DNA of 51,006 bases from NCBI GenBank assembly GCA_001783065.1, contig MFQN01000018.1, positions 1 to 51,006 of the forward strand, given 5' to 3'. Source of the DNA: Candidatus Magasanikbacteria bacterium RIFCSPLOWO2_12_FULL_43_12. Lineage in GTDB: Bacteria > Patescibacteriota > Patescibacteriia > Magasanikbacterales > UBA922. Below, one piece after another: positions 18,383-46,205 of this stretch. The notes beneath the pieces are model-generated. The model saw nothing but the letters and a program-made list of their open reading frames with translations. It was not told the origin of the DNA and did no database searches. The first letter of the stretch is position 1; each line of letters opens with the position of its first letter. The position numbers and the translations under genes are program-made.

Positions 18383-18607
18383 TAGCCCCAAAAGGGGCGA
18401 CAGATAGTAGCCAGGCACTTTAGTGCCTGGAAGAATCTTTAGATAATAATTTTGCTCTTTCTTTGGTGCTAAAAATCGCATGAAACAATAAATTGGAATA
18501 GGTGTTAGACATGTACTTGTGTCGTCCCTACGGGACTGAATTTTAAACGGTGATTTATCCCAGGCACTGAAGTGCCTGGCTATTATCTAGCGTCCCTGAC
18601 GGGACTT
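18383..18607. mobile_element. MITE-like element bounded by ~47-bp composite inverted repeats
   Basis: Left arm 18383-18430 and right arm 18560-18607 are inverted copies: each has a CCAGGCACT/AGTGCCTGG hairpin, the spacer GGCTA(C/T)TATCT, and a second hairpin (GCCCC/GGGGC on the left, GTCCCTGACGGGAC on the right). A further GTCCCTACGGGAC hairpin lies inside at 18524-18536. No ORF. This fills the ~420-bp gap before the 18635 gene. Confidence 0.7.
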
Positions 18608-25869: not shown

Positions 25870-26544
25870 CTAAACAATCAATTTAAATTCTTTCACCAGC
25901 TCTTTGGCCTGTTCTCGAAAAAATTTCTTCACTCCCGGCCAGTTGGCTTTAAAAAATATTCTTGGCTCCGGATCAGCTTCCGCGTCCGCGAAATAAGCCA
26001 AACTTTTGATAATGTGGTGATAATTATGTTCGATATTTGGATACTGGGGACCTAAACGATAAATGATATCAACCAACGGCTCACAATTGCGTATATACCA
26101 ATACAAATCGAAAAAATCTCTTTTTTTACCGCGCTGACTAACGGCAATGATTTTCATCACCGCGATATCTTTCGGCAACAACATACGCACACAACCGTAT
26201 TTGTTTGTTTTTTTACTTGGCGCAAAAAAAGGATAGGCGATAAAACTTGCCTTGGCGCCCATTAACTCGCCGTAAATTGTTCCTTCTTTTATCATCGTCG
26301 TGCGCCAGTCTTTTTTCGGCAAGCGAGACAAGAGTTTGCCGGTATTAAAATCAGCTTGGGGTATAAAAAAATCCAAATCAACCGAACTGCGGTGTCCAAC
26401 TTGCAGAGCCAAAGCCGTACCCCCTGCCAAACACCATTTTGAATGTTCCAACCACTTTTGTTTCGCCAAATAATCCAAAGCTTTTTTCGTGGCGAGAGGA
26501 ATCGCGTCAAAATGCCATTCTAATTCTTGGTGATCAGCTGCCAT
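25870..26544 (-). CDS. AbiEii/AbiGii-family nucleotidyltransferase (toxin)
   Basis: 224 residues. The nucleotidyltransferase core is visible: 'WCLAGGTALALQVGHRSSVDLDFF' (~residues 37-60) gives the GG/GT loop and the DxD metal-binding pair; 'LLPKDIAVMKIIAVSQRGKKRDFFDLYWYI' (~130-160) is the usual second AbiEii block. Members are toxins of type IV-like toxin-antitoxin or abortive-infection systems that modify RNA. It overlaps the end of the small upstream gene by 25 bp, so translation is probably coupled. Confidence 0.9.
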   Translation of the reverse strand: MAADHQELEWHFDAIPLATKKALDYLAKQKWLEHSKWCLAGGTALALQVGHRSSVDLDFFIPQADFNTGKLLSRLPKKDWRTTMIKEGTIYGELMGAKASFIAYPFFAPSKKTNKYGCVRMLLPKDIAVMKIIAVSQRGKKRDFFDLYWYIRNCEPLVDIIYRLGPQYPNIEHNYHHIIKSLAYFADAEADPEPRIFFKANWPGVKKFFREQAKELVKEFKLIV

Positions 26545-26744
26545 AAATTTTTAGTTTCCGGACGCAAAACCCTTGAATGCAGCGCCACTTCGTTGATTAA
26601 TTTTTTCTGATAACTGCGGCTCATCCATCTCACCTCATCGTCCGTGCCAAAATCCAAAATCCGCTCAATGATGTATTTGGCGTGTTTTTTCTTGTCAATT
26701 TTTTTGGGGTCAGTATCCCAAAACAAGGACTGGCGAAAACGCAT
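26520..26744 (-). CDS. DUF6922-like small partner (putative antitoxin)
   Basis: 74 residues beginning 'MRFRQSLFWDTDPKKIDKKK' with 'IIERILDFGTDDEVRWM'. This short family is commonly found directly in front of AbiEii-type nucleotidyltransferases. It is not the AbiEi wHTH antitoxin. The promoter at 26774-26802 serves both genes. The antitoxin role is inferred from position. Confidence 0.8.
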   Translation of the reverse strand: MRFRQSLFWDTDPKKIDKKKHAKYIIERILDFGTDDEVRWMSRSYQKKLINEVALHSRVLRPETKNLWQLITKN

Positions 26745-26968: not shown

Positions 26969-27430
26969 CTACTTGCGGCGAAGGATGCGAACGTTGCCGT
27001 TCCAGACGATGCCGAGCCAGTCCCAGTACTGGACCCAGCAGCCACCGATCCAGTAGACGCAGGCGACGCTCTTGGGGAAGCCCGGACGACGCAAGTCCGT
27101 GAAGACGAACACAACCTTCCCGCGGAGGGCAAAGGGGATGTCGCCCTGGTGACCCAGAAGGTGCGCGCATTCCTCCTTGCCGAGGTTTGCGTTCATCTCC
27201 TTGGCCCGCTCGACCATCACGGGACCGCGCACACTCTCTTCGTTTTTTCGCAAGAAGCCGAGCAAATCGTAGGTGCGACCGCCGACGGTCATGGTGGTGG
27301 GGAGGGAGGCCAAGATCAGCTCGTCGCAAAAGTCCTTGACCTTGCCCGTGTTGTCCGAGCTGATCAAGGCCTGAAACCGCTCGTCACCGAGCTGTTCCGC
27401 CAAGTGAGCCGCCGCTCTGAAATCGCTCAT
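26969..27430 (-). CDS. GC-rich orphan protein 2 (soluble, unknown function)
   Basis: 153 residues. ATG 27430 is preceded by AGGAG at 7 nt. N-terminal helical part, then 'TVGGRTYDLLGFLRKNEESV', 'MVERAKEMNANLGKEE', 'IPFALRGKVVFVFTDLRRP' and a Trp-rich C-terminus ('CVYWIGGCWVQYWDWLGIVW'). I recall similar proteins as multi-copy hypotheticals in Patescibacteria but cannot verify this here. Codon use is GC-rich and unlike neighbours. Single-gene unit with a consensus promoter, ~180-nt leader and a large terminator. Confidence 0.78.
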   Translation of the reverse strand: MSDFRAAAHLAEQLGDERFQALISSDNTGKVKDFCDELILASLPTTMTVGGRTYDLLGFLRKNEESVRGPVMVERAKEMNANLGKEECAHLLGHQGDIPFALRGKVVFVFTDLRRPGFPKSVACVYWIGGCWVQYWDWLGIVWNGNVRILRRK

Positions 27431-27620: not shown

Positions 27621-27649
27621 ATTATAACAAAAAAATGGGTTCCTGTCAA
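27621..27649 (-). promoter_or_regulatory. Promoter of GC-rich orphan gene 2
   Basis: Minus strand: TTGACA (27649-27644), 17-bp spacer, TATAAT (27626-27621), full consensus. Confidence 0.85.
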
Positions 27650-27702: not shown

Positions 27703-28650
27703 CTATAAACGAGATTCCCCCTCCACCACTCTCAACTTTTTGCCATTAAAATCCTGATAATTCTCATGATCAAAATTCCAAAAATTCAGCGGCGCCGGAA
27801 TTTTGCCAGCGCCGTTTGGCGCGTCAATCACATAGGCTGGCACAGCCAAACCGCTTAAGCGCTTGCGCAGTTGAGTAAAAATTTCCACCTCGCGTTTAAA
27901 AGGAACTATGAAACCTTCCGCGCCTCTGACCGGATCACAGCGATAAAGATAATATGGTTTAATGCCAATCTCCACTAAACGCGAAAATAGCTCATATAAA
28001 ATTTCCACGTCGTCATTCACTCCTTTGAGAAAAATTGATTGATTCAAAAGCATAGTCGCAACTTTTTGTAATTTTTTTACCGCTTTAATCGCTTCCGGAG
28101 TGATTTCCGCCGGGTGTTCAAAATGCACCATCAAATACAGAGGTTGTTTTTTTACCACTTTTAAAGCATCCAGCAATTGCTTATTTACCATTGCCGGATT
28201 GGAAACTGGTAATCGCGAAGCCACGCGAATAATTTTTATTTGCGGCAATTTAACAAACTTTCGCAAAACTTTTTTTAATAACACCGGCACGGTTGAGGGA
28301 TCGCCGCCGGAAAAAAGCAATTCTTTAATCTCCGGATGGGCTTTAACATAATTAACCATATTCTCTATGTCTTGATCGGATAATCTGCCTTTTTCTATAT
28401 CAGACACCTTGCGCCGGCGAGTGCAAAAACGACAATAAGCCGCGCAGTTCATGGTCAACAAAATCAAGGCGCGGTTGCCGTATTTATGCACCAATCCGCG
28501 AGTAACCGTGTAATGTTCCTCCAACAATGGATCGTCGCTGGTAACCATTTCAGCTTTTTTTTCTTTGCTGGACGGCACAAACTGACGATAAATCGCTGGA
28601 CATTTTTTAGTTAAGTTTTTAAGATATGGCGACAAGCGGGTGGCGAGCAT
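27703..28650 (-). CDS. Lysine 2,3-aminomutase family radical SAM protein (KamA-like)
   Basis: 315 residues from ATG 28650. A TTG at 28698 overlapping the upstream stop is possible, but the codons between are a GAAAATTG repeat. The radical SAM cluster motif CxxxCxxC is present as 'CAAYCRFC' (Cys69, Cys73, Cys76), followed by 'LLFSGGDPSTVP'. 'DAPNGAGKIP' near residue 275 matches the KamA PLP-lysine segment. The family interconverts alpha- and beta-amino acids (KamA/AblA on free lysine, EpmB on lysine for EF-P); the substrate is undetermined. Third gene of an overlapping operon behind two ATP-grasp ligases. Confidence 0.92.
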   Translation of the reverse strand: MLATRLSPYLKNLTKKCPAIYRQFVPSSKEKKAEMVTSDDPLLEEHYTVTRGLVHKYGNRALILLTMNCAAYCRFCTRRRKVSDIEKGRLSDQDIENMVNYVKAHPEIKELLFSGGDPSTVPVLLKKVLRKFVKLPQIKIIRVASRLPVSNPAMVNKQLLDALKVVKKQPLYLMVHFEHPAEITPEAIKAVKKLQKVATMLLNQSIFLKGVNDDVEILYELFSRLVEIGIKPYYLYRCDPVRGAEGFIVPFKREVEIFTQLRKRLSGLAVPAYVIDAPNGAGKIPAPLNFWNFDHENYQDFNGKKLRVVEGESRL

Positions 28651-28686
28651 ATTTAAAAAATTTTCAATTTTCAATTTACAATTTTC
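28651..28686. repeat. GAAAATTG repeat at the start of the KamA-like gene
   Basis: Tandem GAAAATT/GTAAATT units between the ATP-grasp stop and the ATG of the KamA-like gene. Same family as the repeats inside pgk and ileS. Confidence 0.75.
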
Positions 28687-29725
28687 ATTTATACTCAATT
28701 CCGTATCTGATACAAGCGGCGGAAATAATCCGTTTTAAAAGTGTTTCATAATCAATTCCGGCGACACGGGCGGAAAGCGGGAAATACGAGGTCATGGACA
28801 CTTCCGGCGGAATTAATCCGGCCGGAGAATTAATTTCCAAAATATATGGATTGCCTGCGCGGTCGCAACGGGTGTCAACGCGGCAAAAATCGCACAACTG
28901 CAGAACTTCCCACGCTTGTAAACAAATTCTTTTAATTTTTTCTTCCAAATCAGAGCTGATTTTAGCCGGACAAATAAAATTCGCGCCACCGCTGGCTTCC
29001 TCAATAATCCACTTGACATCTAAAGAATCTATTGGCCTCAATCCTGGCGGTAAAGTGGAATGATCGGACTCGATAATCGGTAAAACTTCCGGCGGATCAT
29101 TGCCCAGAATTGGCACGGAAAATTCCCTGCCGTCTAAAAACGGCTCCACCAGCGCTTTTTGTTTAAAATTACTTATCACAAATTTCAACCGCCGGCGCAA
29201 ACCATTCTCATCTTCAACCACGCTATCATTGGTAATACCGGCTGATGAACCTTGTGAATTCGGCTTTACGATCAAAGGATATTTTAATTCTGAATTCAAC
29301 TCTTCATTTCCGGTTAAAAAGACTTGGTGCGGCAAAACCGGCACACCATGAGATCGTAAAACATCTTTGGCAATCGCTTTATCTAAAACCAGAGCTTCGG
29401 TTAAAGGCGAACCGCCGGTGTAAGGAATTTTCAACATTTCCAGCATCGCCGGAATATGACACTCGCGATCACGACCATGCAATCCCTCCGCGAAATTAAA
29501 AACCAAATCAATTTTGTCTTTGTTTTCGTATAATCGCAAATATGCTTCTTCATTCGCTTCAATCGGCAAAACTTCCAAACCTAAATTTTTAAAATGCTTA
29601 ATCATCCATTCAATCGTCGCCGGATCGTCAAAATCAGTATCAAGCTGAATCCTCTTTTCATTTGGGTCCGGATAATTATGCCTAACATTGTAAAGAAAGG
29701 CGATTTTATTCAGCGGCATATTCAT
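28685..29725 (-). CDS. D-alanine-D-alanine-ligase-like ATP-grasp enzyme (second of pair)
   Basis: 346 residues from ATG 29725, or 344 from the next ATG; both overlap the end of the upstream gene by 14-20 bp. ATP-grasp signatures of the Ddl clade: 'KYPLIVKPNSQGSSAGI' (~160-176), 'EPFLDGREFSVPIL', 'CRVDTRCDRAGNPYILEINSPAG' (~290-312, metal-binding Glu and Asn intact). It joins two amino acids or peptides through an acyl phosphate. The middle ('PIIESDHSTLPPGLRPIDSLDVKW') departs from true Ddl, and the 'F-I-C-P-A' loop differs, so the substrate may not be D-Ala. Co-transcribed with another ligase and a KamA-like mutase. Confidence 0.9.
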   Translation of the reverse strand: MNMPLNKIAFLYNVRHNYPDPNEKRIQLDTDFDDPATIEWMIKHFKNLGLEVLPIEANEEAYLRLYENKDKIDLVFNFAEGLHGRDRECHIPAMLEMLKIPYTGGSPLTEALVLDKAIAKDVLRSHGVPVLPHQVFLTGNEELNSELKYPLIVKPNSQGSSAGITNDSVVEDENGLRRRLKFVISNFKQKALVEPFLDGREFSVPILGNDPPEVLPIIESDHSTLPPGLRPIDSLDVKWIIEEASGGANFICPAKISSDLEEKIKRICLQAWEVLQLCDFCRVDTRCDRAGNPYILEINSPAGLIPPEVSMTSYFPLSARVAGIDYETLLKRIISAACIRYGIEYK

Positions 29726-30740
29726 TGGCGGTAAACGGCAAACGTTCCTTGCCTTGAGCATCGCGCATTGTATTTAAAAGCAATCGTTTTAAAATTTCCG
29801 TAAAATCAATTCCGTATAAGCCTAAAATATTGGCAATCGCGCAATCAAGCTCTTTCGGACCAAACGCCGGGTTGGAATTACTGTCAATAAAATAATAGCG
29901 GTTTGACTGATCAACGCGGATATCAAATTTGCCGTAATCAGACATCCGCGAAACGTCAAAAGCGCGTTTTACGTATTCAGACAAAACCGGATCCTGATAT
30001 TTTTCATAATGGAAGCTGTTGAATCCCTCTGTCCACTGATCATCAAAAGTGGCAAAAACGTATTTCTCATCTTGAGCGTGAAAAACTTTCTCCGCAGTAT
30101 ATACTTTTTTGTTTAATCCTTCCAAAAGCATAGCCGTCACTTCCCGACCCACGATAAACTCTTCCACCAACACCGGTTGTTTGTAGGTGCTGATTAAAAA
30201 TTTCAAACGCTCGCGTAAATGCTTCTCATTTTCCGACACCGCGTCTTTGGTAATTTCCACCGCGCCATGAATTTCGTTCAACTTGCTGATTAATGGAAAA
30301 CGCAATTTATAATCAAGCGGCGCGTTAAACGAAGATATCAGCTGAAATCTTGGTACCGGCACGCCATGGCTTTGCAAAAGTTCTTTAACTAAAAATTTAT
30401 TATAGACTAATGATTCGCCTAAAATTCCCGCTCCGGTATATGGCACATCCATTGATTCCAGCAAACCGGGAATCATGGAAGATAAATACTCCTGCCCGTG
30501 GATTGAGCCTACTAAATTGATTACCAAGTCCGGCTTATCCCGCAACAAATCAGCAACCAAAACCGGATTACCCGGATAATAATAAACTTTGATACCCATC
30601 CGATCTAAATAACCGCCTATCACTTCCGCGTCATGTTTGGCGTCTTTTTCGGTTAAATATTGCGCCTCTGTCGGGAAATACTCTCTTTTAACCTCGCTAT
30701 AAATAATCGCTACTGATTGCGGCAAACCCTCTTTGTCCAT
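29706..30740 (-). CDS. Divergent Ddl-like ATP-grasp enzyme (first of pair)
   Basis: 344 residues from ATG 30740 (MDKEGLPQSVAIIYSEVKRE). It has the Ddl N-terminal Rossmann half with 'PDLVINLVGSIHGQEYLSSMIPGLLESMDVPYTG', central 'RFPLISKLNEIHGAVEI' in place of the usual KP..GSS.G loop, 'VEEFIVGREVTAML', and a C-terminal 'GKFDIRVDQSNRYYFIDSNSNPAFGP' in which the usual metal-binding Glu-Ile-Asn is Asp-Ser-Asn. The ATP-binding and metal sites are therefore altered but recognisable. It is related to, but clearly distinct from, its downstream neighbour. Specificity unknown. Confidence 0.85.
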   Translation of the reverse strand: MDKEGLPQSVAIIYSEVKREYFPTEAQYLTEKDAKHDAEVIGGYLDRMGIKVYYYPGNPVLVADLLRDKPDLVINLVGSIHGQEYLSSMIPGLLESMDVPYTGAGILGESLVYNKFLVKELLQSHGVPVPRFQLISSFNAPLDYKLRFPLISKLNEIHGAVEITKDAVSENEKHLRERLKFLISTYKQPVLVEEFIVGREVTAMLLEGLNKKVYTAEKVFHAQDEKYVFATFDDQWTEGFNSFHYEKYQDPVLSEYVKRAFDVSRMSDYGKFDIRVDQSNRYYFIDSNSNPAFGPKELDCAIANILGLYGIDFTEILKRLLLNTMRDAQGKERLPFTANEYAAE

Positions 30741-30744
30741 AAAA

Positions 30745-30855
30745 TCATTCAAATAAAATAACCCAAAAAGCACTTCCTTGTCTTTTTGGGTTTATAATTT
30801 TTTTTAAATTGTTTTCAGGAAAAGGATCCTCGCTGTCAGACCGCTCAAGGTCCAT
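30745..30855 (-). CDS. Small leader ORF upstream of the ATP-grasp/KamA operon
   Basis: 36 residues (starts MDLERSDSEDPFPENNL, ends with GSAFWVILFE). Its stop lies five bases before the ATG of the first ligase. TATAAT ends six bases before its ATG, suggesting a leaderless start. The 3' half encodes the stem of the 30760-30792 hairpin. It has three Lys close to the hairpin (LKK, PKR). It could be a regulatory leader peptide, a precursor peptide for the ligases, or chance. Confidence 0.35.
   Translation of the reverse strand: MDLERSDSEDPFPENNLKKIINPKRQGSAFWVILFE
30750..30792 (-). terminator. Hairpin with U-rich tail inside the leader of the ATP-grasp/KamA operon
   Basis: Minus strand: AACCCAAAAAG (30792-30782), 11-nt loop, CTTTTTGGGTT (30770-30760), then ATTTTATTTG. 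The 11 bp are perfect. It may terminate ileS read-through or act as an attenuator, because it lies between the TTGACA promoter (30894-30921) and the first ligase. Confidence 0.7.
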
Positions 30856-30893
30856 AATTTTATTATAACGAAAATGGCATGAAAACCACCTAT

Positions 30894-30921
30894 ATTTTAT
30901 CACTCTAAAATTACCTGTCAA
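30894..30921 (-). promoter_or_regulatory. Promoter of the ATP-grasp/KamA operon
   Basis: Minus strand: TTGACA (30921-30916), 16-bp spacer, TAAAAT (30899-30894), between the ileS stop and the leader ORF. Confidence 0.65.
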
Positions 30922-37350: not shown

Positions 37351-40300
37351 TTAAAGACCATTAAGCGTATCTCTTGTCGCCTTGCCAACCACACCAGGAT
37401 ATGGCGATAGTTTATAGGCCTGCTGAAGCTTCACCACCGCCTCTTTTGTCTTGGCGCCGAAAGTGCCGGTCGGCTCAACAGAAAGATAACCAAGCGCTTT
37501 CAACTTTTCCTGCAATTTTGTCACTTCGGTCCCGCTGTCGCCTTGTTGCAAAGTCAAACTAAACTTATATACCCCGCTGTCTGTTTTTTTAACGCTCGCT
37601 GGCGCTGTCAATGTTTCGCCGTCAGCGTATGTTTCTTTACTATCAATCGTTACAATTCTATCCCAGCGGAAAGTCAGCGTGTTGAAGGCAGCCTCATCTT
37701 TGATATAACGTTTTACTTGTTTGGCCGCGTCTTTTGGATCCGGTTCCAGACGATAAACCTTGGCGCTATTTTTATACTTAATTAAAGTATAGCTCGGATG
37801 CTTGCTGATGTCGGTGATTTCTTCGCCTAACTGATATTTGGCCAACAAAGCTTCATCAATATCTTCAATCCAATTCCATTTATAACTCAAAGCATTAAAC
37901 ACATCTTCAGAAATAATCCAGTATTTCTTATCTCCCAACAACAGATAGACTTTCGGATCGCTTACTATTTTCACCAGCGCGCCGTATTTCGGATCATATT
38001 TCGGACCCCAAGGCATAAAGCCCAGAGTATCATTCTTCAGATTATTCAATTCCCCGGCGGTTACAGTTTTAACATCCGACCACGAAGTGAAGTAAGTGAA
38101 GAACACATTGGCTTTATTGAATGGGCGCTTGGCGCAATCCGGGGTGATATAAAATACCGCCGCCGAATTTTTCAATTTGTAAGCGCTGCCCGGAGCCAAT
38201 GAACAGGTAACGGTTGTTATTTTTTCAACAGCAGTAGATTTCTCCGCCGTCTTTTTTTCTTCTGCTGTAGCTTCAGAAATTACGGTAATGTCAACTGTTT
38301 TAATGGCAGTTGTTTCACCGCTAGCGCTGCGAAATTTTACATATATTTTCTTGGCGCCTAAACCACTGGATAAAGTATATTTCTTAGTGGAAGAATAGCT
38401 TTCCCACGCTACGCCAGAGAAATCCGCATTTTCCGAAATCGCCATCTGAACCGCGTTGGATACACTAAACTTCAAGGCGGCAATCTGGGAGCTCTTTGCG
38501 GCATCACCGTCTACTGAAACAGGAACAGCGCCGAGTACGGGTGGCGAGCTTGCTGAACCGCCGCCGCCAGCGCCGCCACTGCCAGCGCCAGTTGGTGTAG
38601 CGGCGTTGGAAGCAGAAGAAAGATCTGATTCCAAACCGCCGGTATCAGTCGCTGTAATTTTGTAATAGTAAGTAGTGCCATTAACAGCCGTTGAATCAGT
38701 GTAACTATTAGAAGTTGAAGACCCGAGCGACGAATAGGTGCCGGCGGGAGAAGTTGAACGATAAACATCGTAGCCTTGCAAGTCTCCTTCACTGCCGGCT
38801 GTCCAAGTTAAAGATACGGAATTATTACCCGCAACCGCTGCTACATTGGTTATAATACTTGGCGCCACGCCATCAGAAGGAACAATCGGATTAAACGATG
38901 AAAAGTGTGATGTTTGGCCGGTGTAAGCGACGGTTGACGCGCTTGTTGAAGGCTCAATAAATTTACCGCTTGAATCTTTGTAAGCAATCGTGGTCGGCAG
39001 AGTCTGCCAATTATCAGCGGTGTCGTCCCACGACCCCATCTGCACTTTGCCAAGCTTAGCCAGAGTTAACGTACCCAAAGCCGTAGTCATGTCGCTATTG
39101 GAATAACTGGCGCTCACAGCAACATCATCATTTAACAGTGTAACGGTATTGCCATCATTATCGTAACTATTAATCGTTTTAGCTTCTCCGCTAACCGGTG
39201 TTCCGGCATTGCCGCCAACCACATTTGATATTTCCTTATCATTCATGCTGTATGGATTCGCGGAACTGGATAAAGCGGCTTCAGATGCCTTAACCGAAGC
39301 GCCGGCGGAAGAGTCGTTCATTGAACCGCCATTTTGCGGCGTAACAGATTGGGAAGTTGAACCAGAAAGCGAAGTCGCGGTGGTAGACAACGTAATATTA
39401 ATACTGGACACATTCGCGCTGCTAACTGCCACTATTGAACCATGGGTGCTCTCTGTGTAACCATCGGCTGCAGCAGAAACTTTCCAATTGCCATTGATGA
39501 CTTTCAAAGAATATGTGCCGTCTGAACCAGTGGTGGCCGTCACTATCCCGCCGCCTAATTTTTCCGCGCGCACCGTAGCGCCGGAAGCGGCAGAAGAACC
39601 AGCGGTGATTGTTCCGGAAATAGTGTAGGCCGCGACAGTCATCGTGGTGGCTGAATCTGCCAAAGCTCCACTGGCGCTAACTGCGACGCTTGAAGCAGTG
39701 TCAATGTACCCGTCTTTGGTGGCGCTAATCAAATAAGTGGCGCTGGAAAGCTTCGTAGAATAATTGCCGCTTGTGTTGGCTTGCACATCCATCTTCTCGC
39801 CGGTTGAAGAATTTTCTAAATACACTGTCGCGTCAGGAACAGCATTACCAGCCGCATCTTTCACCGTGCCATTTACATAATTAAGAGCAGGTAATTTTAT
39901 ATTGATTGACTCGGTATTAGCGTCAATTTCAACTTTCCAATAACCTGTGGCCGCTGTAGAGGTGGCAAGCACGGTGTTACTATCAGCACCATACACAATT
40001 AAATTACTATCAGAAACTCCGGGGATGGTTACATCCAACAAATACATGTTAGTCGGATTAGTGCTAGTAACGGCGTTAAGAGCATTTGCCACATCGTATT
40101 GGTGTAAAGATATTGTGCTGGAAGCAGTGCCGCTAAACGATTCGGTCTTGTCGCTCTTGCCGCCAATTTGCATAAACTCCACCACTGCCTTCATACTGCT
40201 CGTGGCATTACCATCAGAATCCAAAATATTAATTGTCACCGCGCCGGTTTTTGGCGCAAGAATGTCATAAGGCACGGTGGTGACTGTTCCGGCGCCGCTA

Positions 40301-43300
40301 ACCACGACACTCTGCGTTGAAGAAGACATCTCACCTTGAATTGGCGAATATGCTTTCATAGTGTACGTGCCGGGCGGAAGTTTAAGAGTGGAACTGCCGT
40401 TTGTGTCGGTTATTCCGCTATTAACATAACTGACATTCTCGCCGCTATCACTGGTGTCGCCATCATTATTCAAGTCTCCGGTGGTACCCTCAACAATCAT
40501 TTGAACATTGCTGGTTCCTTCGCCAGAATCTAACACACCATCGGCATCGGTGTCATTTCCGACACTCTTTGTGACAGTGGCGTAATTAACCGAACTTGTG
40601 TTGGGCTCAAAGTTTTTTCCGCTGGAACTGGAGCCGCTGATCGTCACGGTTTGTTCCGGCAACTTGCCATAATCCGGAACAAATGCCTGCACTTTCCAGG
40701 TGCCATTAGCCACATACAATGTATAATTTCCGGAAGAATTAGTAAATGTTTCAGAGTGACCAGGACCATCTGTGCGATAAGCGCTTACTGGCGCGTTAGC
40801 CACTGGATTAGTGCCATCGGTCACTTGTCCGGAAATAGTATAAGATGGTTTGCTGATTGTGAGTATTAAACTGGCATTCGTCATGCTGGATAAAGCGATG
40901 CCAGTACTGGACCCATCAACAAACACCTTATCAGTACCGCCGTCATCCTTTACTAAAATCGAGCGTTCCACGCCCCCGGGCATGCCTGAAACACTAGCGC
41001 CAATCTTATACGTGCCATAAGACAAATTAATTGAACCTGTGCCATCAGCATTCGCCATTGTGTCATTTCCCGCGTTAGAAGCCGGCGAATAAGCGAATAC
41101 ATTAGCATTAGCAATCGCATTGCTGGAAGCGTCCTTAACGGAAAATTTGATTGTCTTGTTGGCGGCCGATACATTAAAGGTAAGAGTGGTAGGATTAGTG
41201 GCGCAGGCATCAGGACAGCCGCTCACCTGCACTTCTTGCGGTTTTGGCGGCATCCATGTCGTCGGCGCTGACGGACCGCCTTTGCCAAAAATCTCCGTGG
41301 ACATCTGCGGACCAAAACCAACCATCCAAACACCGTTAGCGTTTAATTTTATGCTATTACTTGTATCATTTGTTAATGCCCCATCAAGCGTAGAAGTGGT
41401 TTTTCTGAACGAACCGGGACCGCCGGCAAAAATATCAATCGCATTGTTGCTAAATGTGCCGCTGATACTCAAAGTCACAGAAACGCCGGTGGAAGCATCC
41501 ACAACCGTAAGATTTTTACTGCAGATATCAGATGAGCAATTTGTGGAATTAACATTGATCGACGCCGGAAAACCGGCGGTATAATTAGTAGCGCCGGATT
41601 TGGCAAACTGCTCTGCTCCTAACATATAATTGCCGGCAACTAAATTTTGGAACATAAATTCTCCGGTCTGACCATTGAAACGTCCGGTTGCGGTTGAAGT
41701 TGATTGCGGCCCGGTCATCGGCGACATTAAGAAAACATTGATACCGTTGATACCGCTCGCGCCAGCCAATACGCGGCCGCGCACCGTGAAGCTGCCGGCG
41801 GCAGACGTGAAGAAAGAACCGGAAGAAAGAGTTTCAAGAACTGTGCCATCAGCTTTCTTAGTGGTAACAGTGGCAGAATTTCCGCTCATACCGATTTTGG
41901 TGGCAGTAGTTGGATTTACAATCTGCGCGATATCTAAACGCAAGAAATCATGCTGATCTCCATCACCAGAAGTCAGATTACCAGTACCGCGGCGAGTAGC
42001 CACTGCTCCCAAAATAACTCTCACGATGCGTGAATCCGTATTTACTATTACACCATCGCTTGACGCCCCGCCAGTTGTCCAGCCAGATGGCAATGTGCCC
42101 TCGCTTGTGCCAAACACAACCACGCCCGAACCTGGCCCGTTCAAATCATTATTAGGCGGACTGTCTGTATCTTTTTTGGCGTTAGTGACATCGGCGCCAT
42201 CAGGGAAAGCGATATCAATAAACCCGGCGTTGGGAATTTGGTAAGACAACGGAATCTCCACTCCATAAATCGTGCTCACGTTGGCCATGGAATTAAACGG
42301 ATAAACTTTCACCCCCGGGGCAAAACCGATTCCGGATTCCATGAATGTGCCTACCATTGCCGGCGGTCCACCCATCATTCCGCCCTGCATCATATTGCCG
42401 CCAGCATCGAATTGCGGACCCATCATCCCCATACCGCCGCCCATAGTAAAACCGCCGGTTTTGGCGCTGGAGTACGCGGTGGTGGTCACTGCCGCGGTCG
42501 AATCAGCGGCGATATTATTGAAACTGATGTCCTTGACACCGCTAACGCTAATGTTTATCAAATTATTGGCGGCAATACCGGCAATACCATTCAAAGCCAC
42601 ACTGCGACTGGCCGCGTCATAAGTTATCGTAGCGGTTGAAGTGGCAATGGTCGCTTGCGTCGCGCCGGCGGAATTCACTAAATGAATAGTATAATTAGCC
42701 GGTTTCAAAACACTGCTCGCGTAATTAATATCGCTTGCCGAGACTGCCAACATCGGCTTAGAAAAAGCGATTTTCAACGCATAATCATTGGCTTGCGCGG
42801 AAACAACCGTAGGAGCAGAGGTATCGGCGCCGCCGGTAGTGAAAGTGCGCAAAAGTGTTGCGGCCATGGCATTACCGGCCAAATCTTGAACGCCGGTCGT
42901 AACTGTAATTGTATAAGTGCTGGTAGGAGTCAGAGAATAGTCTGGAACAAAAACAACCATCCAATTGTTGGGATCGTAAGTCAAATCGCCGGCAACTGCC
43001 GTGGAGCCTAATTTGAGAACTACGGACGTGTCAGTAACAGTGGACGGATTCATTGATTCAGAAAAACTAATAATAATCGGTTTTGCCGTGGAAATTCCGG
43101 TTGCGACATCCGCGGGAATGGTAGTGTCAACCGTCGGGGCGCTGGTATCGCCGGTGGCGCTGGCGCTGGTATCAAAATCAGCCTGATACTTTACACTGGT
43201 TAAATAACCAGATGTTCCCGGATTACCCAAAGGAATACCTTTGGCGGATTGTATTCCACCCAGCACCTCCACGCGATAATGAGAACTGACATCTAAATTA

Positions 43301-46176
43301 CTGGATGGAGTGATGATAATTATTTTATTACTGCTGTCAATACTATTTGTCGCTGTCACCAAACTCTTTGATTCATTGGAAGCAAAAGGATTGGTAACTT
43401 TATATAGTTTTACATTAGCCAAGTTGGCAGCAGAATTTTGCATTGCCTCGGAAAAAGTCACAAATACTTTGGTGTTGCGCGCCACACTTTGTTTGCCGGG
43501 AGCCGGCTGACTGCCGACCACATACGCTGGAAATGCGTTACCGGTGCCAAAAGTCGCGCCAATGTCTGAAATACTGCTATACATTCCCCCGCTGGTGGAA
43601 AACGGCAAAATATAATTACCTCCGGGACTGTTGCCCATCACCGGATTACCGGCAGAGTCTTTAACACCCTGCGTTAAAAATAAAGTATAATTCTTGCCGG
43701 ATGTTAACGCGGAAGTCGGAGTAAATTTAACCTGCGTGGCTGACCCGGCCGCAACCGAACCGGCAATATGAGTGCCGCTACCAGCTTCAGTCAAATACAC
43801 ATTGGCGGTGGTAAAAGTCGTGGTATCCACGGCTTTATCAAAATTAATCTCTATAGATGACACAATACCATCGCTTTTTAAAGTCGGGAAACCCATCATG
43901 CCTTGAGCTGGAAAAGAACTGGCCACTTTGGGCTGGGTAAAGTCACCACCCATGCCCATAGAGCCGCTGTACAAAGACAACGCGGGCAGAGAAACCAAAC
44001 CGGAAGAAGGAATGAAAAATGAAAGAGATTGGTCGCCATAACCATCTTTGGCGATTTTTAATTGAGCGCCGCCCATTGGTCCGACATTCGCAAAACTAAA
44101 AGTGCCGTCACTGCCAGTGGTCGCGGCAAATTGCGTGCCGTCAATCCAAACTGTAGCGCCGCTGACCGCCGCGCTGGAACTGTCATTAACCGTACCCATG
44201 ATTGACGCGCTACCCAAATTACCAGAACTCAAAACAGTGGCTAAGGCTTTACTTTGTTGCAAGGCCGCTGTCTGAATACCGGTGCCGGTAGTATCATAAG
44301 TATTAGCGTCAAAACCAGGATCATTGGTAATCACCTTGGTCTTCGCTGGCGAAGCAGAGTCAGTTGCCAGAATATAATATTTAAGAAGGGTCTTGCCGGT
44401 TCCCCAAGAAGTTGAAGTGGCGCTAAATTTATACCAGCTGGAACCGATATTCGTGCCATAAATCGGTGTTGACGACGCTGGAGTGCAAGTTGATGAATCA
44501 GTAACACAATAAATAAACTGGGTGTTTCCTGATGGAACATTGCCGCCATCGTCAAAAATTCTTGCGATTAAATTTAGAGTAGTATCAACGCTGGCTTTAA
44601 AAACCGGCGCGTGCTGAATACTGGGCGCTTGGTTATTAGCTCCTCCGTAAGATCCGCCGGTTGGATTTTCTGCCAAAGCAATACGGCTATTTTGCGATTC
44701 CGGCGTCGTCCGAGTCACAAAATCAAAATAATTATTTTGCGTATCAATGCCGTTGCCATTGGTGTCCGCCGACATACTCGCCGAAGTAGAATCATTAAAC
44801 GCCTTGCGTTCAATGGAGGTGCCATCATTGGCGCTTAAACCGCTGGCCGCGCTGCCTTCGCAGTTTGCTGATACGGCATGACTGCCCCAGCAAACCTTAT
44901 CCATCACCGCGGTAGAGCTGGCCGCGCTGTTGCTAATATAGGCCGCGCCGCCTGGTACTAAAGAAGCTACGGTGGAAGTGGAATAAACCGCGTCGGCCGT
45001 GGATGAAGCGGAAGAAGTGATCGGCGCAATTAGTAAAAATTTATGAGATGGAATATTCGGCACCACGCTTCCATCAAGAAAAGTCAAGGGAACATTAACA
45101 TCCATTGTGCCGGCGGCATTTACAAAATGCAACTTAACAGTAGAAGTGGCTATGCTTCCGCCGGAACGATTATATACTTCAATAAATTCATTATATTGGT
45201 CTGTCGCTGAACCGATTTTAATCTCTGAAATAGCCAAAGGCACAATCGCGCTCATAATAGAAAAAACAGTGATACCAGCATTAGATTTGCCAGAAGTATT
45301 TTTAACACCATTAGAAACTGTAACTGACCAAGTGCCATCTGACACCACGGTAGCCCCGGTAGTCAAACGAACAGATTTGTTATCCGGCAAAACCACAATA
45401 GAACTAATTGTCTGTGAAACACCCGAAGCATTCCTTAAAGTATAGTTAGCGGTTGACGTGGCATTGCCTGAATTCAGGTCTAAACTATCAGTAAAAGAAA
45501 CATCAACATTAGACGCATTAACAAAGGTAACTTTTTCAACGCTAAATCCGCTCCATCCGCTGCCACCGTCCCCGCCGAAAGATACCGTTCTGGAGCCGGT
45601 AATAGGCGTGACTGTCGGCGAATTGGCAGAGGTCGCAATGCCATCAGCCGCAAAATTGATATAAATTGAATCCCCGGCCGTCCAATTAGCCGCGGTTTTA
45701 ATGGCCACAAAAAAACTGGTCGGCAGAGCGCCATCAGCCGCCAAACTATTGTTGCTTCCGGTTGTAATCGTGGTGGCTGAACCAACATTAACCGAGGTCT
45801 GCGTGCCGGCAGAAGCATCGCTTTGCGGGTCAAAATAATTATTGCTGTTGCTATCTTTAAAAACCACCAGCTGGGAGATATGCGAAGCTAAAACCGCGTT
45901 ATTAGCCGGTATGGTGCTGGTAACGGTAACAGTAACACTGCTCAAAGTCTCACTGCCGCCAGAGCTTTTGTTTAAAGAAAAACGAAAGATTGGAATATCA
46001 TAGCTGCTAGCCATGACTGTCATTCCTCCACTCATCGGCAAGAGATCAAACGGACCGCTGGCCGTGACTGCCACCGCTTTGGCTGTCTGCGGAATTAACG
46101 CGGATAAACCCAATGACCAAAGAATAGTGGTAACGACCACAAACAACATTGAAAACTTTTTTAATTGTTTATACAT
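37351..46176 (-). CDS. Giant multi-domain surface protein with C-terminal peptidoglycan-binding domain
   Basis: 2941 residues from ATG 46176; a TTG two codons earlier is less likely. Signal peptide ~residues 1-37 ending 'AKA'. In order: beta-rich N-terminal region (~40-320); lamin-tail-like domain 'ISEIKIGSATDQYNEFIEVYN' (~325); several Big_5-type Ig modules with 'GKNYTLFLTQGVKDSAGN' (~830) and 'TPTSTYTITVTTGVQDLAGN' (~1100); a Met/Gly-rich run (~1240-1275); four or more carboxypeptidase-regulatory-like modules ('ISGQVTDGTNPVANAPVSAY', ~1790); one fibronectin III domain (~2440-2530); a CPR-type Trp/Tyr repeat region; and a PG-binding-1 domain (~2870-2941, 'LQQGDSGTEVTKLQEKLKALG'). Likely cell-wall-bound adhesin or S-layer-like protein. 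Confidence 0.93.
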   Translation of the reverse strand: MYKQLKKFSMLFVVVTTILWSLGLSALIPQTAKAVAVTASGPFDLLPMSGGMTVMASSYDIPIFRFSLNKSSGGSETLSSVTVTVTSTIPANNAVLASHISQLVVFKDSNSNNYFDPQSDASAGTQTSVNVGSATTITTGSNNSLAADGALPTSFFVAIKTAANWTAGDSIYINFAADGIATSANSPTVTPITGSRTVSFGGDGGSGWSGFSVEKVTFVNASNVDVSFTDSLDLNSGNATSTANYTLRNASGVSQTISSIVVLPDNKSVRLTTGATVVSDGTWSVTVSNGVKNTSGKSNAGITVFSIMSAIVPLAISEIKIGSATDQYNEFIEVYNRSGGSIATSTVKLHFVNAAGTMDVNVPLTFLDGSVVPNIPSHKFLLIAPITSSASSTADAVYSTSTVASLVPGGAAYISNSAASSTAVMDKVCWGSHAVSANCEGSAASGLSANDGTSIERKAFNDSTSASMSADTNGNGIDTQNNYFDFVTRTTPESQNSRIALAENPTGGSYGGANNQAPSIQHAPVFKASVDTTLNLIARIFDDGGNVPSGNTQFIYCVTDSSTCTPASSTPIYGTNIGSSWYKFSATSTSWGTGKTLLKYYILATDSASPAKTKVITNDPGFDANTYDTTGTGIQTAALQQSKALATVLSSGNLGSASIMGTVNDSSSAAVSGATVWIDGTQFAATTGSDGTFSFANVGPMGGAQLKIAKDGYGDQSLSFFIPSSGLVSLPALSLYSGSMGMGGDFTQPKVASSFPAQGMMGFPTLKSDGIVSSIEINFDKAVDTTTFTTANVYLTEAGSGTHIAGSVAAGSATQVKFTPTSALTSGKNYTLFLTQGVKDSAGNPVMGNSPGGNYILPFSTSGGMYSSISDIGATFGTGNAFPAYVVGSQPAPGKQSVARNTKVFVTFSEAMQNSAANLANVKLYKVTNPFASNESKSLVTATNSIDSSNKIIIITPSSNLDVSSHYRVEVLGGIQSAKGIPLGNPGTSGYLTSVKYQADFDTSASATGDTSAPTVDTTIPADVATGISTAKPIIISFSESMNPSTVTDTSVVLKLGSTAVAGDLTYDPNNWMVVFVPDYSLTPTSTYTITVTTGVQDLAGNAMAATLLRTFTTGGADTSAPTVVSAQANDYALKIAFSKPMLAVSASDINYASSVLKPANYTIHLVNSAGATQATIATSTATITYDAASRSVALNGIAGIAANNLINISVSGVKDISFNNIAADSTAAVTTTAYSSAKTGGFTMGGGMGMMGPQFDAGGNMMQGGMMGGPPAMVGTFMESGIGFAPGVKVYPFNSMANVSTIYGVEIPLSYQIPNAGFIDIAFPDGADVTNAKKDTDSPPNNDLNGPGSGVVVFGTSEGTLPSGWTTGGASSDGVIVNTDSRIVRVILGAVATRRGTGNLTSGDGDQHDFLRLDIAQIVNPTTATKIGMSGNSATVTTKKADGTVLETLSSGSFFTSAAGSFTVRGRVLAGASGINGINVFLMSPMTGPQSTSTATGRFNGQTGEFMFQNLVAGNYMLGAEQFAKSGATNYTAGFPASINVNSTNCSSDICSKNLTVVDASTGVSVTLSISGTFSNNAIDIFAGGPGSFRKTTSTLDGALTNDTSNSIKLNANGVWMVGFGPQMSTEIFGKGGPSAPTTWMPPKPQEVQVSGCPDACATNPTTLTFNVSAANKTIKFSVKDASSNAIANANVFAYSPASNAGNDTMANADGTGSINLSYGTYKIGASVSGMPGGVERSILVKDDGGTDKVFVDGSSTGIALSSMTNASLILTISKPSYTISGQVTDGTNPVANAPVSAYRTDGPGHSETFTNSSGNYTLYVANGTWKVQAFVPDYGKLPEQTVTISGSSSSGKNFEPNTSSVNYATVTKSVGNDTDADGVLDSGEGTSNVQMIVEGTTGDLNNDGDTSDSGENVSYVNSGITDTNGSSTLKLPPGTYTMKAYSPIQGEMSSSTQSVVVSGAGTVTTVPYDILAPKTGAVTINILDSDGNATSSMKAVVEFMQIGGKSDKTESFSGTASSTISLHQYDVANALNAVTSTNPTNMYLLDVTIPGVSDSNLIVYGADSNTVLATSTAATGYWKVEIDANTESINIKLPALNYVNGTVKDAAGNAVPDATVYLENSSTGEKMDVQANTSGNYSTKLSSATYLISATKDGYIDTASSVAVSASGALADSATTMTVAAYTISGTITAGSSAASGATVRAEKLGGGIVTATTGSDGTYSLKVINGNWKVSAAADGYTESTHGSIVAVSSANVSSINITLSTTATSLSGSTSQSVTPQNGGSMNDSSAGASVKASEAALSSSANPYSMNDKEISNVVGGNAGTPVSGEAKTINSYDNDGNTVTLLNDDVAVSASYSNSDMTTALGTLTLAKLGKVQMGSWDDTADNWQTLPTTIAYKDSSGKFIEPSTSASTVAYTGQTSHFSSFNPIVPSDGVAPSIITNVAAVAGNNSVSLTWTAGSEGDLQGYDVYRSTSPAGTYSSLGSSTSNSYTDSTAVNGTTYYYKITATDTGGLESDLSSASNAATPTGAGSGGAGGGGSASSPPVLGAVPVSVDGDAAKSSQIAALKFSVSNAVQMAISENADFSGVAWESYSSTKKYTLSSGLGAKKIYVKFRSASGETTAIKTVDITVISEATAEEKKTAEKSTAVEKITTVTCSLAPGSAYKLKNSAAVFYITPDCAKRPFNKANVFFTYFTSWSDVKTVTAGELNNLKNDTLGFMPWGPKYDPKYGALVKIVSDPKVYLLLGDKKYWIISEDVFNALSYKWNWIEDIDEALLAKYQLGEEITDISKHPSYTLIKYKNSAKVYRLEPDPKDAAKQVKRYIKDEAAFNTLTFRWDRIVTIDSKETYADGETLTAPASVKKTDSGVYKFSLTLQQGDSGTEVTKLQEKLKALGYLSVEPTGTFGAKTKEAVVKLQQAYKLSPYPGVVGKATRDTLNGL

Positions 46177-46205
46177 ACGCAAAATAAATTAGATAATTAT
46201 ATATG

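What the first reader, a model, noticed from the sequence alone, without database searches (positions are those of the whole stretch)
27703..30921. Overlapping operon of two different Ddl-like ATP-grasp ligases and a lysine 2,3-aminomutase homologue
Seen: ligase 1 (divergent metal site), ligase 2 (canonical Ddl motifs) and a KamA-like radical SAM enzyme are on one strand; the ligase reading frames overlap by 14-20 bp and KamA starts at the ligase-2 stop. Known: KamA makes beta-lysine; ATP-grasp Ddl enzymes join amino acids. Inference: the operon may build a beta-amino-acid-containing dipeptide or modify a peptide or cell-wall precursor. I know of no described pathway with this gene set, and the unusual middle of ligase 2 and altered metal site of ligase 1 argue against two ordinary D-Ala-D-Ala ligases.
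Basis: partly seen in the sequence, partly recalled or inferred. Interest (0 to 1): 0.78.

Follow-up and report, generated by a model that had tools for sequence, protein, structure and literature searches.

The report
Beta-lysine enzyme with two peptide ligases
A small bacterium of the Patescibacteria carries an operon pairing an enzyme predicted to make the unusual amino acid beta-lysine with two altered peptide-bond-forming ligases; related gene sets recur in other Patescibacteria and across Planctomycetota, so it is probably an undescribed beta-lysine pathway, although in this genome beta-lysine very likely also serves a known translation factor.

Summary
The three genes are real and translationally coupled. 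Likely limits: lig1 29706-30740, lig2 28685-29719, KamA 27703-28650, all minus strand. Both ligases are Ddl-fold ATP-grasp enzymes under purifying selection but with altered substrate positions. They are the only PF07478 proteins in this Magasanikbacteria genome. KamA keeps all lysine-2,3-aminomutase contact residues.

The trio recurs in sister genomes, another Magasanikbacterium and, at an unrelated locus, a Kuenenbacterium. A related four-gene set, lig2-ligB-GNAT-KamA, recurs in Planctomycetota: 28 of the 30 best lig2 loci have KamA close by. I found no description in the open-access papers searched.

This genome also encodes EpmA plus EF-P with the target lysine. A complete KamA-negative relative lacks both. 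One relative has KamA and EpmA but no ligase; two have KamA and ligases but no detected EpmA. Best reading: KamA makes beta-lysine with two consumers, EF-P and the ligase pair. The peptide product is inferred, not shown.

New: a promoter, a conserved micro-ORF (MDxxRSxxEDPFP) and a terminator-like hairpin precede the ligase genes in several Magasanikbacteria, suggesting translation-dependent attenuation.

The parts
30894..30921 (-). promoter TTGACA-16-TAAAAT with TG before the -10
   Evidence: 11 of 12 matches; also present in L109, L110 and L111 upstream of lig1
30745..30855 (-). leader micro-ORF MDLERSDSEDPFPENNLKKIINPKRQGSAFWVILFE
   Evidence: ATG-to-stop micro-ORFs with the EDP(F/L) motif immediately before ligase genes in L109, L110, L111, L116 and L104; synonymous changes in the E, D, P and R codons
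30760..30792 (-). terminator-like hairpin AACCCAAAAAG-loop-CTTTTTGGGTT followed by ATTTTATTT, overlapping the end of the micro-ORF
   Evidence: fold z-score -3.5 for the whole leader; a 10-14 bp hairpin at this place in most relatives. Not listed by the consensus terminator scan
29706..30740 (-). lig1: divergent Ddl-fold ATP-grasp ligase, 344 aa (start ATG 30740; the longer GTG start at 30773 is less likely)
   Evidence: model pLDDT 87, best PDB match DdlB 8evy_C Z 31.6, 2.4 A over 294 residues
28685..29719 (-). lig2: Ddl-fold ATP-grasp ligase with altered substrate positions, 344 aa; overlaps lig1 by 14 bp
   Evidence: model pLDDT 88, best PDB match Ddl 4c5a_B, E 1.8e-25
27703..28650 (-). KamA-type lysine 2,3-aminomutase (radical SAM plus PLP), 315 aa
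   Evidence: CxxxCxxC, R94, D255, D292 and PLP Lys K299 match LAM R134, D293, D330 and K337; only KamA in the genome

Best explanation
The operon makes beta-lysine and joins amino acids. KamA converts L-lysine to beta-lysine by radical SAM and PLP chemistry (inferred from conserved residues). lig1 and lig2 are Ddl-fold ATP-grasp ligases that activate a carboxylate as an acyl phosphate and join it to an amine (mechanism inferred from kept ATP, Mg and oxyanion residues), but not with ordinary Ddl specificity. In the pathway that the wider distribution points to, the two ligases act in turn, or as a pair, to build a short peptide or peptide-like metabolite containing beta-lysine; Planctomycetota and the patescibacterium L113 add a GNAT acetyltransferase. 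In this genome beta-lysine has a second, known consumer: EpmA, which attaches it to EF-P Lys34. Shown: gene structure, conservation, neighbourhood linkage, presence of EpmA and EF-P. Inferred: substrates, product, order of steps, and expression control through the leader micro-ORF and hairpin.
For: The trio in the same order is conserved in L109, L110, L111 (Magasanikbacteria) and L115 (Kuenenbacteria, unrelated flanks). The KamA-lig2-ligB-GNAT set in one patescibacterium (L113) matches the lig2-ligB-GNAT-KamA unit of Planctomycetota: KamA lies next to lig2 in 19 of 20 extended Planctomycetota loci, both ligases in 17, GNAT in 18; counting together, KamA is within about 3 kb of lig2 in 28 of 30. 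In the trees KamA of the window genus is sister to KamA of L111, while the two ligase pairs belong to different subtypes, and L116 has fused ligases at the same ileS-KamA locus; repeated exchange of the ligases beside a vertically inherited KamA argues for a working link. G146 and G398 have KamA and ligases but no EpmA-like gene. KamA keeps all LAM lysine-contact residues. Separate high-scoring Ddl genes exist in G146, G148 and G396. Purifying selection on all three genes.
Against: No biochemistry. Twelve genomes with lig2-type ligases have no KamA, one of them (G883) with the closest lig1-lig2 pair, so the ligases can work without beta-lysine. lig2 of KamA carriers and non-carriers show the same substrate-loop residues. 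In G400 KamA sits alone between ileS and the NIF3 gene with no PF07478 protein in the genome. The window genome has EpmA and EF-P, a sufficient use for KamA. No GNAT is adjacent in the window. The Planctomycetota KamA is only about 39% identical and the ligB about 26%, so that unit may be analogous rather than orthologous.
Confidence: 0.45

Rival explanations
1. KamA here is simply the EpmB of this lineage: it makes beta-lysine for EF-P only. The ligases share its operon by position (an ileS-KamA-NIF3 locus that takes up ligase genes) and make a dipeptide from ordinary amino acids.
For: EpmA above its curated cut-off in G381, G246, G399, G400 and G148, each followed by EF-P with a Lys at the modified position; in G000 the EpmA is cut by a contig end (273.5 bits against a cut-off of 286.9) and in G382 the pair was seen by size, LysRS similarity and EF-P alignment. 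The complete KamA-negative relative G150 has no EpmA-specific and no EF-P match. G400 has KamA and EpmA without any ligase. Ligases occur without KamA in 12 genomes.
Against: KamA lies beside ligases in several lineages and in different gene orders and almost always in the Planctomycetota sample. G146 and G398 carry KamA plus ligases without a detected EpmA. KamA scores 223 bits against a 369-bit cut-off for the EpmB model.
Confidence: 0.33
2. The ligases replace the missing Ddl: lig2, with or without lig1, makes the terminal dipeptide that the MurF-like enzyme adds to the cell-wall stem peptide.
For: They are the only PF07478 proteins of a 99.6% complete genome. Sampled members of the family lack a high-scoring Ddl, yet MurF-like, Mpl/MurC-like and MurE-like genes and PBP2 are present. 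lig2 keeps most Ddl catalytic residues.
Against: Close relatives without these ligases also lack Ddl but keep Mur ligases. KamA-linked ligases coexist with a high-scoring Ddl in G146, G148 and G396. No alanine racemase by PF00842 in the own genome; this is weak, because G146 and G078 have a Ddl without a PF00842 match too. H63, Y216 and the D-Ala2 loop are changed.
Confidence: 0.15
3. The conserved micro-ORF before lig1 is a precursor peptide that the ligases extend or modify, so this is a new kind of ribosomally made, modified peptide.
For: Micro-ORF conserved at the amino-acid level and placed immediately before ligase genes in six loci; a hairpin after a precursor gene is common in such clusters (general knowledge).
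Against: Not found with the trio in Kuenenbacteria (L115 unmatched; the same genome region L033 unmatched) or in other ligase carriers. The hairpin overlaps the ORF end as in attenuators. No known grasp-type core motif. C-termini vary, with total lengths from 17 to 36 aa.
Confidence: 0.04

Closest known systems
EF-P beta-lysylation (EpmA/EpmB, PoxA/YjeK)
   Same: KamA-type lysine 2,3-aminomutase, EpmA and EF-P with Lys34-equivalent in the same genome
   Different: EpmB model not reached (223 of 369 bits); two ATP-grasp ligases in the operon; EpmA-EF-P are elsewhere in the genome
AblA/AblB N-epsilon-acetyl-beta-lysine osmolyte pathway
   Same: KamA homologue next to a GNAT acetyltransferase in Planctomycetota and L113
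   Different: no AblB model match for the Planctomycetota GNAT (only weak RimI); two ligases added; the window lacks the GNAT
D-alanine--D-alanine ligase (Ddl) and Van ligases
   Same: fold, ATP and Mg residues, closest solved structures
   Different: below all NCBIfam Ddl cut-offs; Y216W, H63E or H63G, changed D-Ala2 loop; lig1 also E270D, R255K, S150G, K215Q, S281C
MgtL-type leader peptides (ribosome destabilisation by early acidic-proline motifs, PMC11282234)
   Same: short ORF with an early acidic-proline motif (EDPFP versus EPDP) before a terminator and the regulated genes
   Different: different genes, intrinsic-type hairpin rather than Rho; regulation not tested

Membership tests
KamA / lysine 2,3-aminomutase | radical SAM CxxxCxxC, PLP lysine and lysine-contact Asp pair | tested here: met
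   C85-x3-C89-x2-C92, K299, D255, D292, R94 align with LAM 2a5h; roles of the residues from general knowledge; L116 has E in place of D255
KamA / lysine 2,3-aminomutase | family model score | tested here: met
   TIGR00238 231 bits, cut-off 199; not above the AblA equivalog cut-off (256 of 525)
EpmB (EF-P beta-lysylation) | EpmB equivalog score | tested here: not met
   TIGR03821 223 bits, cut-off 369
EpmB (EF-P beta-lysylation) | EpmA and EF-P with modifiable Lys in the genome | tested here: met
   EF-P loop NPGKGSAF; EpmA truncated by a contig end in G000 (273.5 bits over 254 residues, cut-off 286.9), above cut-off in G381, G246, G399, G400 and G148
EpmB (EF-P beta-lysylation) | beta-lysine delivered to EpmA | not testable with these tools
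   needs enzyme assay
D-alanine--D-alanine ligase | Ddl fold | tested here: met
D-alanine--D-alanine ligase | curated Ddl model cut-offs | tested here: not met
   best 165 of 243 bits (lig2) and 97 of 243 (lig1)
D-alanine--D-alanine ligase | conserved substrate residues (E15, H63, S150, Y216, R255, S281) | tested here: not met
   E15 conserved as D/E; H63 and Y216 lost in both ligases; S150, R255 and S281 kept in lig2 only
D-alanine--D-alanine ligase | D-Ala-D-Ala synthesis | not testable with these tools
   needs enzyme assay
AblA/AblB acetyl-beta-lysine pathway | beta-lysine acetyltransferase next to the aminomutase | tested here: not met
   no GNAT adjacent in the window; the Planctomycetota GNAT matches only RimI weakly
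Attenuator leader peptide | short ORF conserved as a coding sequence before a terminator-like hairpin and the operon | tested here: met
   codon-level conservation and hairpin in place; translation itself not shown
Attenuator leader peptide | expression responds to leader translation | not testable with these tools
   needs reporter fusion

The most novel reading that the evidence does not exclude
KamA and the ligase pair make a previously unknown beta-lysine-containing peptide metabolite shared by Patescibacteria and Planctomycetota, and in Magasanikbacteria the operon senses its own need: ribosomes translating the acidic-proline leader EDPFP depend on beta-lysylated EF-P, so beta-lysine supply sets whether the terminator forms.
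Probability: 0.1. Interest if true: 0.85.

Novelty: new variant of a known kind. Interest (0 to 1): 0.6.

Why it matters
A beta-amino acid made by a KamA enzyme and handled by stand-alone ATP-grasp ligases, rather than by large assembly-line enzymes, would be a short, portable route to beta-peptides. The same gene set in two distant phyla makes it testable in culturable Planctomycetota. It also gives Patescibacteria a concrete EF-P modification pathway, and a warning that KamA neighbours need not explain KamA. Automatic annotation is likely to call these ligases D-Ala-D-Ala ligases, which would mislead cell-wall reconstructions for a group where true Ddl is often absent.

Tried and rejected
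Chance adjacency was rejected because of recurrence in several lineages and gene orders. Pseudogene or decaying lig1 was rejected: dN/dS about 0.07, with the changed metal residues fixed in five orthologues. Glutamate aminomutase was disfavoured: the lysine-contact Asp pair is kept and the equivalog cut-off is not reached. Alanine racemase absence was considered as proof against Ddl activity but given little weight, because G078 and G146 have a Ddl and no PF00842 match. The leader as a pure structured RNA was considered; Rfam has no match, and the L104 copy has synonymous changes in the E, D and P codons, which fits a coding leader better. A covariance model of the leader found nothing in the KamA-negative genome G150. 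Fold searches by Foldseek and VIA-align listed Ddl-type enzymes for lig1 and, by Foldseek, for lig2; other ATP-grasp families not listed are not excluded. No paper matched aminomutase with ATP-grasp and Planctomycetes, or lysine aminomutase with the Candidate Phyla Radiation; the library is open access only.
Full report
What is there. The window is one contig of a 1.05 Mb, 99.6% complete genome. Its nearest named relatives are Candidatus Magasanikbacteria. Minus strand order is ileS (33902-30939), a promoter, a micro-ORF with a hairpin, lig1, lig2, KamA. Comparison with orthologues sets lig1 at 30740-29706, lig2 at 29719-28685 (14 bp overlap) and KamA at 28650-27703.

The enzymes. Both ligases have the Ddl fold: pLDDT 88 and 87, and the best solved matches are Ddl enzymes. 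It has E for H63, W for Y216, Y or R for L282, and a longer loop. lig1 keeps K97, K144, E180, E187, D257 and N272 but has D for E270, K for R255, G for S150, Q for K215 and C for S281. KamA aligns with LAM (2a5h) through the cluster cysteines, R94, D255, D292 and K299, which predicts activity on lysine. dN/dS is low for all three genes.

Conservation. Trio in the same order: two same-genus genomes (L109, L110), Magasanikbacteria GW2011_GWA2_37_8 (L111), and Kuenenbacteria (L115) at a locus with different flanks. Variants: KamA-lig2-ligB-GNAT-PLP decarboxylase (L113), lig2-KamA (L114), fused ligase-unknown-KamA-fused ligase (L116). KamA without ligases: ileS-KamA-NIF3 in L112 and G229. In 381 genomes of the class, 22 have a KamA homologue. 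The Planctomycetota record L119 has lig2-ligB-GNAT-KamA. Of 20 Planctomycetota loci chosen by lig2 similarity alone and extended, 19 have KamA nearby, 17 both ligases, 18 GNAT; with the shorter loci the KamA count is 28 of 30. In these trees KamA of the window genus is sister to that of L111, but their ligase pairs are of different subtypes: the window pair is nearest G883, G006 and G1006, the L111 pair nearest L115 and G384.

A known consumer of beta-lysine. A PF00152 search found short LysRS-like genes in KamA carriers. TIGR00462 identifies them as EpmA, above the curated cut-off in G381, G246, G399, G400 and G148; the own genome's copy is cut by a contig end and scores just under it. Each is followed by EF-P with Lys in the loop position of E. 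coli K34. G400 has KamA and EpmA but no PF07478 protein. G146 and G398 have KamA and ligases but no EpmA-like match; the G146 fragment is AspRS. The complete relative G150, without KamA, shows only LysRS for EpmA and no EF-P match. So KamA and EF-P lysylation co-occur in this family, and KamA and ligases co-occur also where EpmA was not found. Beta-lysylation of EF-P Lys34 is described in PMC4739656 (abstract).

Are they the missing Ddl? They are the only PF07478 proteins here, and the sampled family lacks a high-scoring Ddl although Mur ligase homologues persist. G146, G148 and G396 carry a separate high-scoring Ddl besides the KamA-linked ligases, and G399 has a Ddl-like gene split into two frames. 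No PF00842 alanine racemase was found in the own genome, but G078 and G146 show the same absence with a Ddl, so this is weak. A Ddl role is possible, not favoured.

Leader. Upstream of lig1 lie TTGACA-16-TAAAAT and an ATG micro-ORF whose N-terminal half is conserved: MDLERSDSEDPFPENN (window), MDLERSDNEDPFPGNK (L110), MDLDRSVSEDPFPENN (L109), MDLLRSLDEDPFPQKFK (before the fused ligase of L116), MNHVSFTEDPFPNLISD (L111), MDPLRSDSEDPLTNLY (before lig2 of G384, L104). The L104 copy differs from the window by five synonymous and five non-synonymous codons in the first 14. A terminator-like hairpin follows; in the window, L109, L110 and L104 the stop codon lies in or after it, so full translation should disturb it (inference). 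The leader was not found in L112 or G150. An acidic-proline motif early in a leader recalls MgtL, where ribosomes drop off at EPDP (PMC11282234). That EF-P is the sensor is speculation.

Verdict. No enzyme activity has been shown.

Noticed in passing
L096, L116, L224, L041-L050: Many Patescibacteria carry 800-830 aa fusions of an L-amino-acid-ligase-type ATP-grasp domain with a Ddl-like domain, often beside 450-470 aa proteins with weak similarity to WbuX or MurL epimerase. This looks like an undescribed peptide-making gene family.
   Followed up: partly
window 25870-26744 (-): AbiEii plus DUF6922 pair (toxin-antitoxin type) sits between KamA and the NIF3-like gene in the window but is absent there in the same-genus genome L110.
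   Followed up: partly
window 26969-27430 (-) and 27621-27649 (-): ORF of 153 aa without family match, preceded by a perfect TTGACA-17-TATAAT promoter.
   Followed up: no
window 18384-18430 (-) and 18560-18606 (+): Two Rfam Acido-Lenti-1 RNA matches above the gathering score.
   Followed up: no
own genome contigs C28, C14, C3, C1 (L089-L092): Only four Mur-ligase-family matches: membrane-anchored MurF-like, Mpl/MurC-like, FolC-like and a MurE fragment at a contig end. No MurD was recognised, so the stem peptide may be unusual.
   Followed up: partly
L225 7149-8122 (G399 contig 4): Ddl-like gene, 61-66% identical to the G078 Ddl, split into two frames in the trio-bearing Magasanikbacterium of L111.
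   Followed up: no
L113 3930-5135: PLP decarboxylase of the Orn/DAP/Arg family directly after the KamA-lig2-ligB-GNAT set; it could supply lysine if it is LysA-like.
   Followed up: no
window 37351-46182 (-): Single open frame of 2943 aa, conserved in the same genus; function not examined.
   Followed up: no
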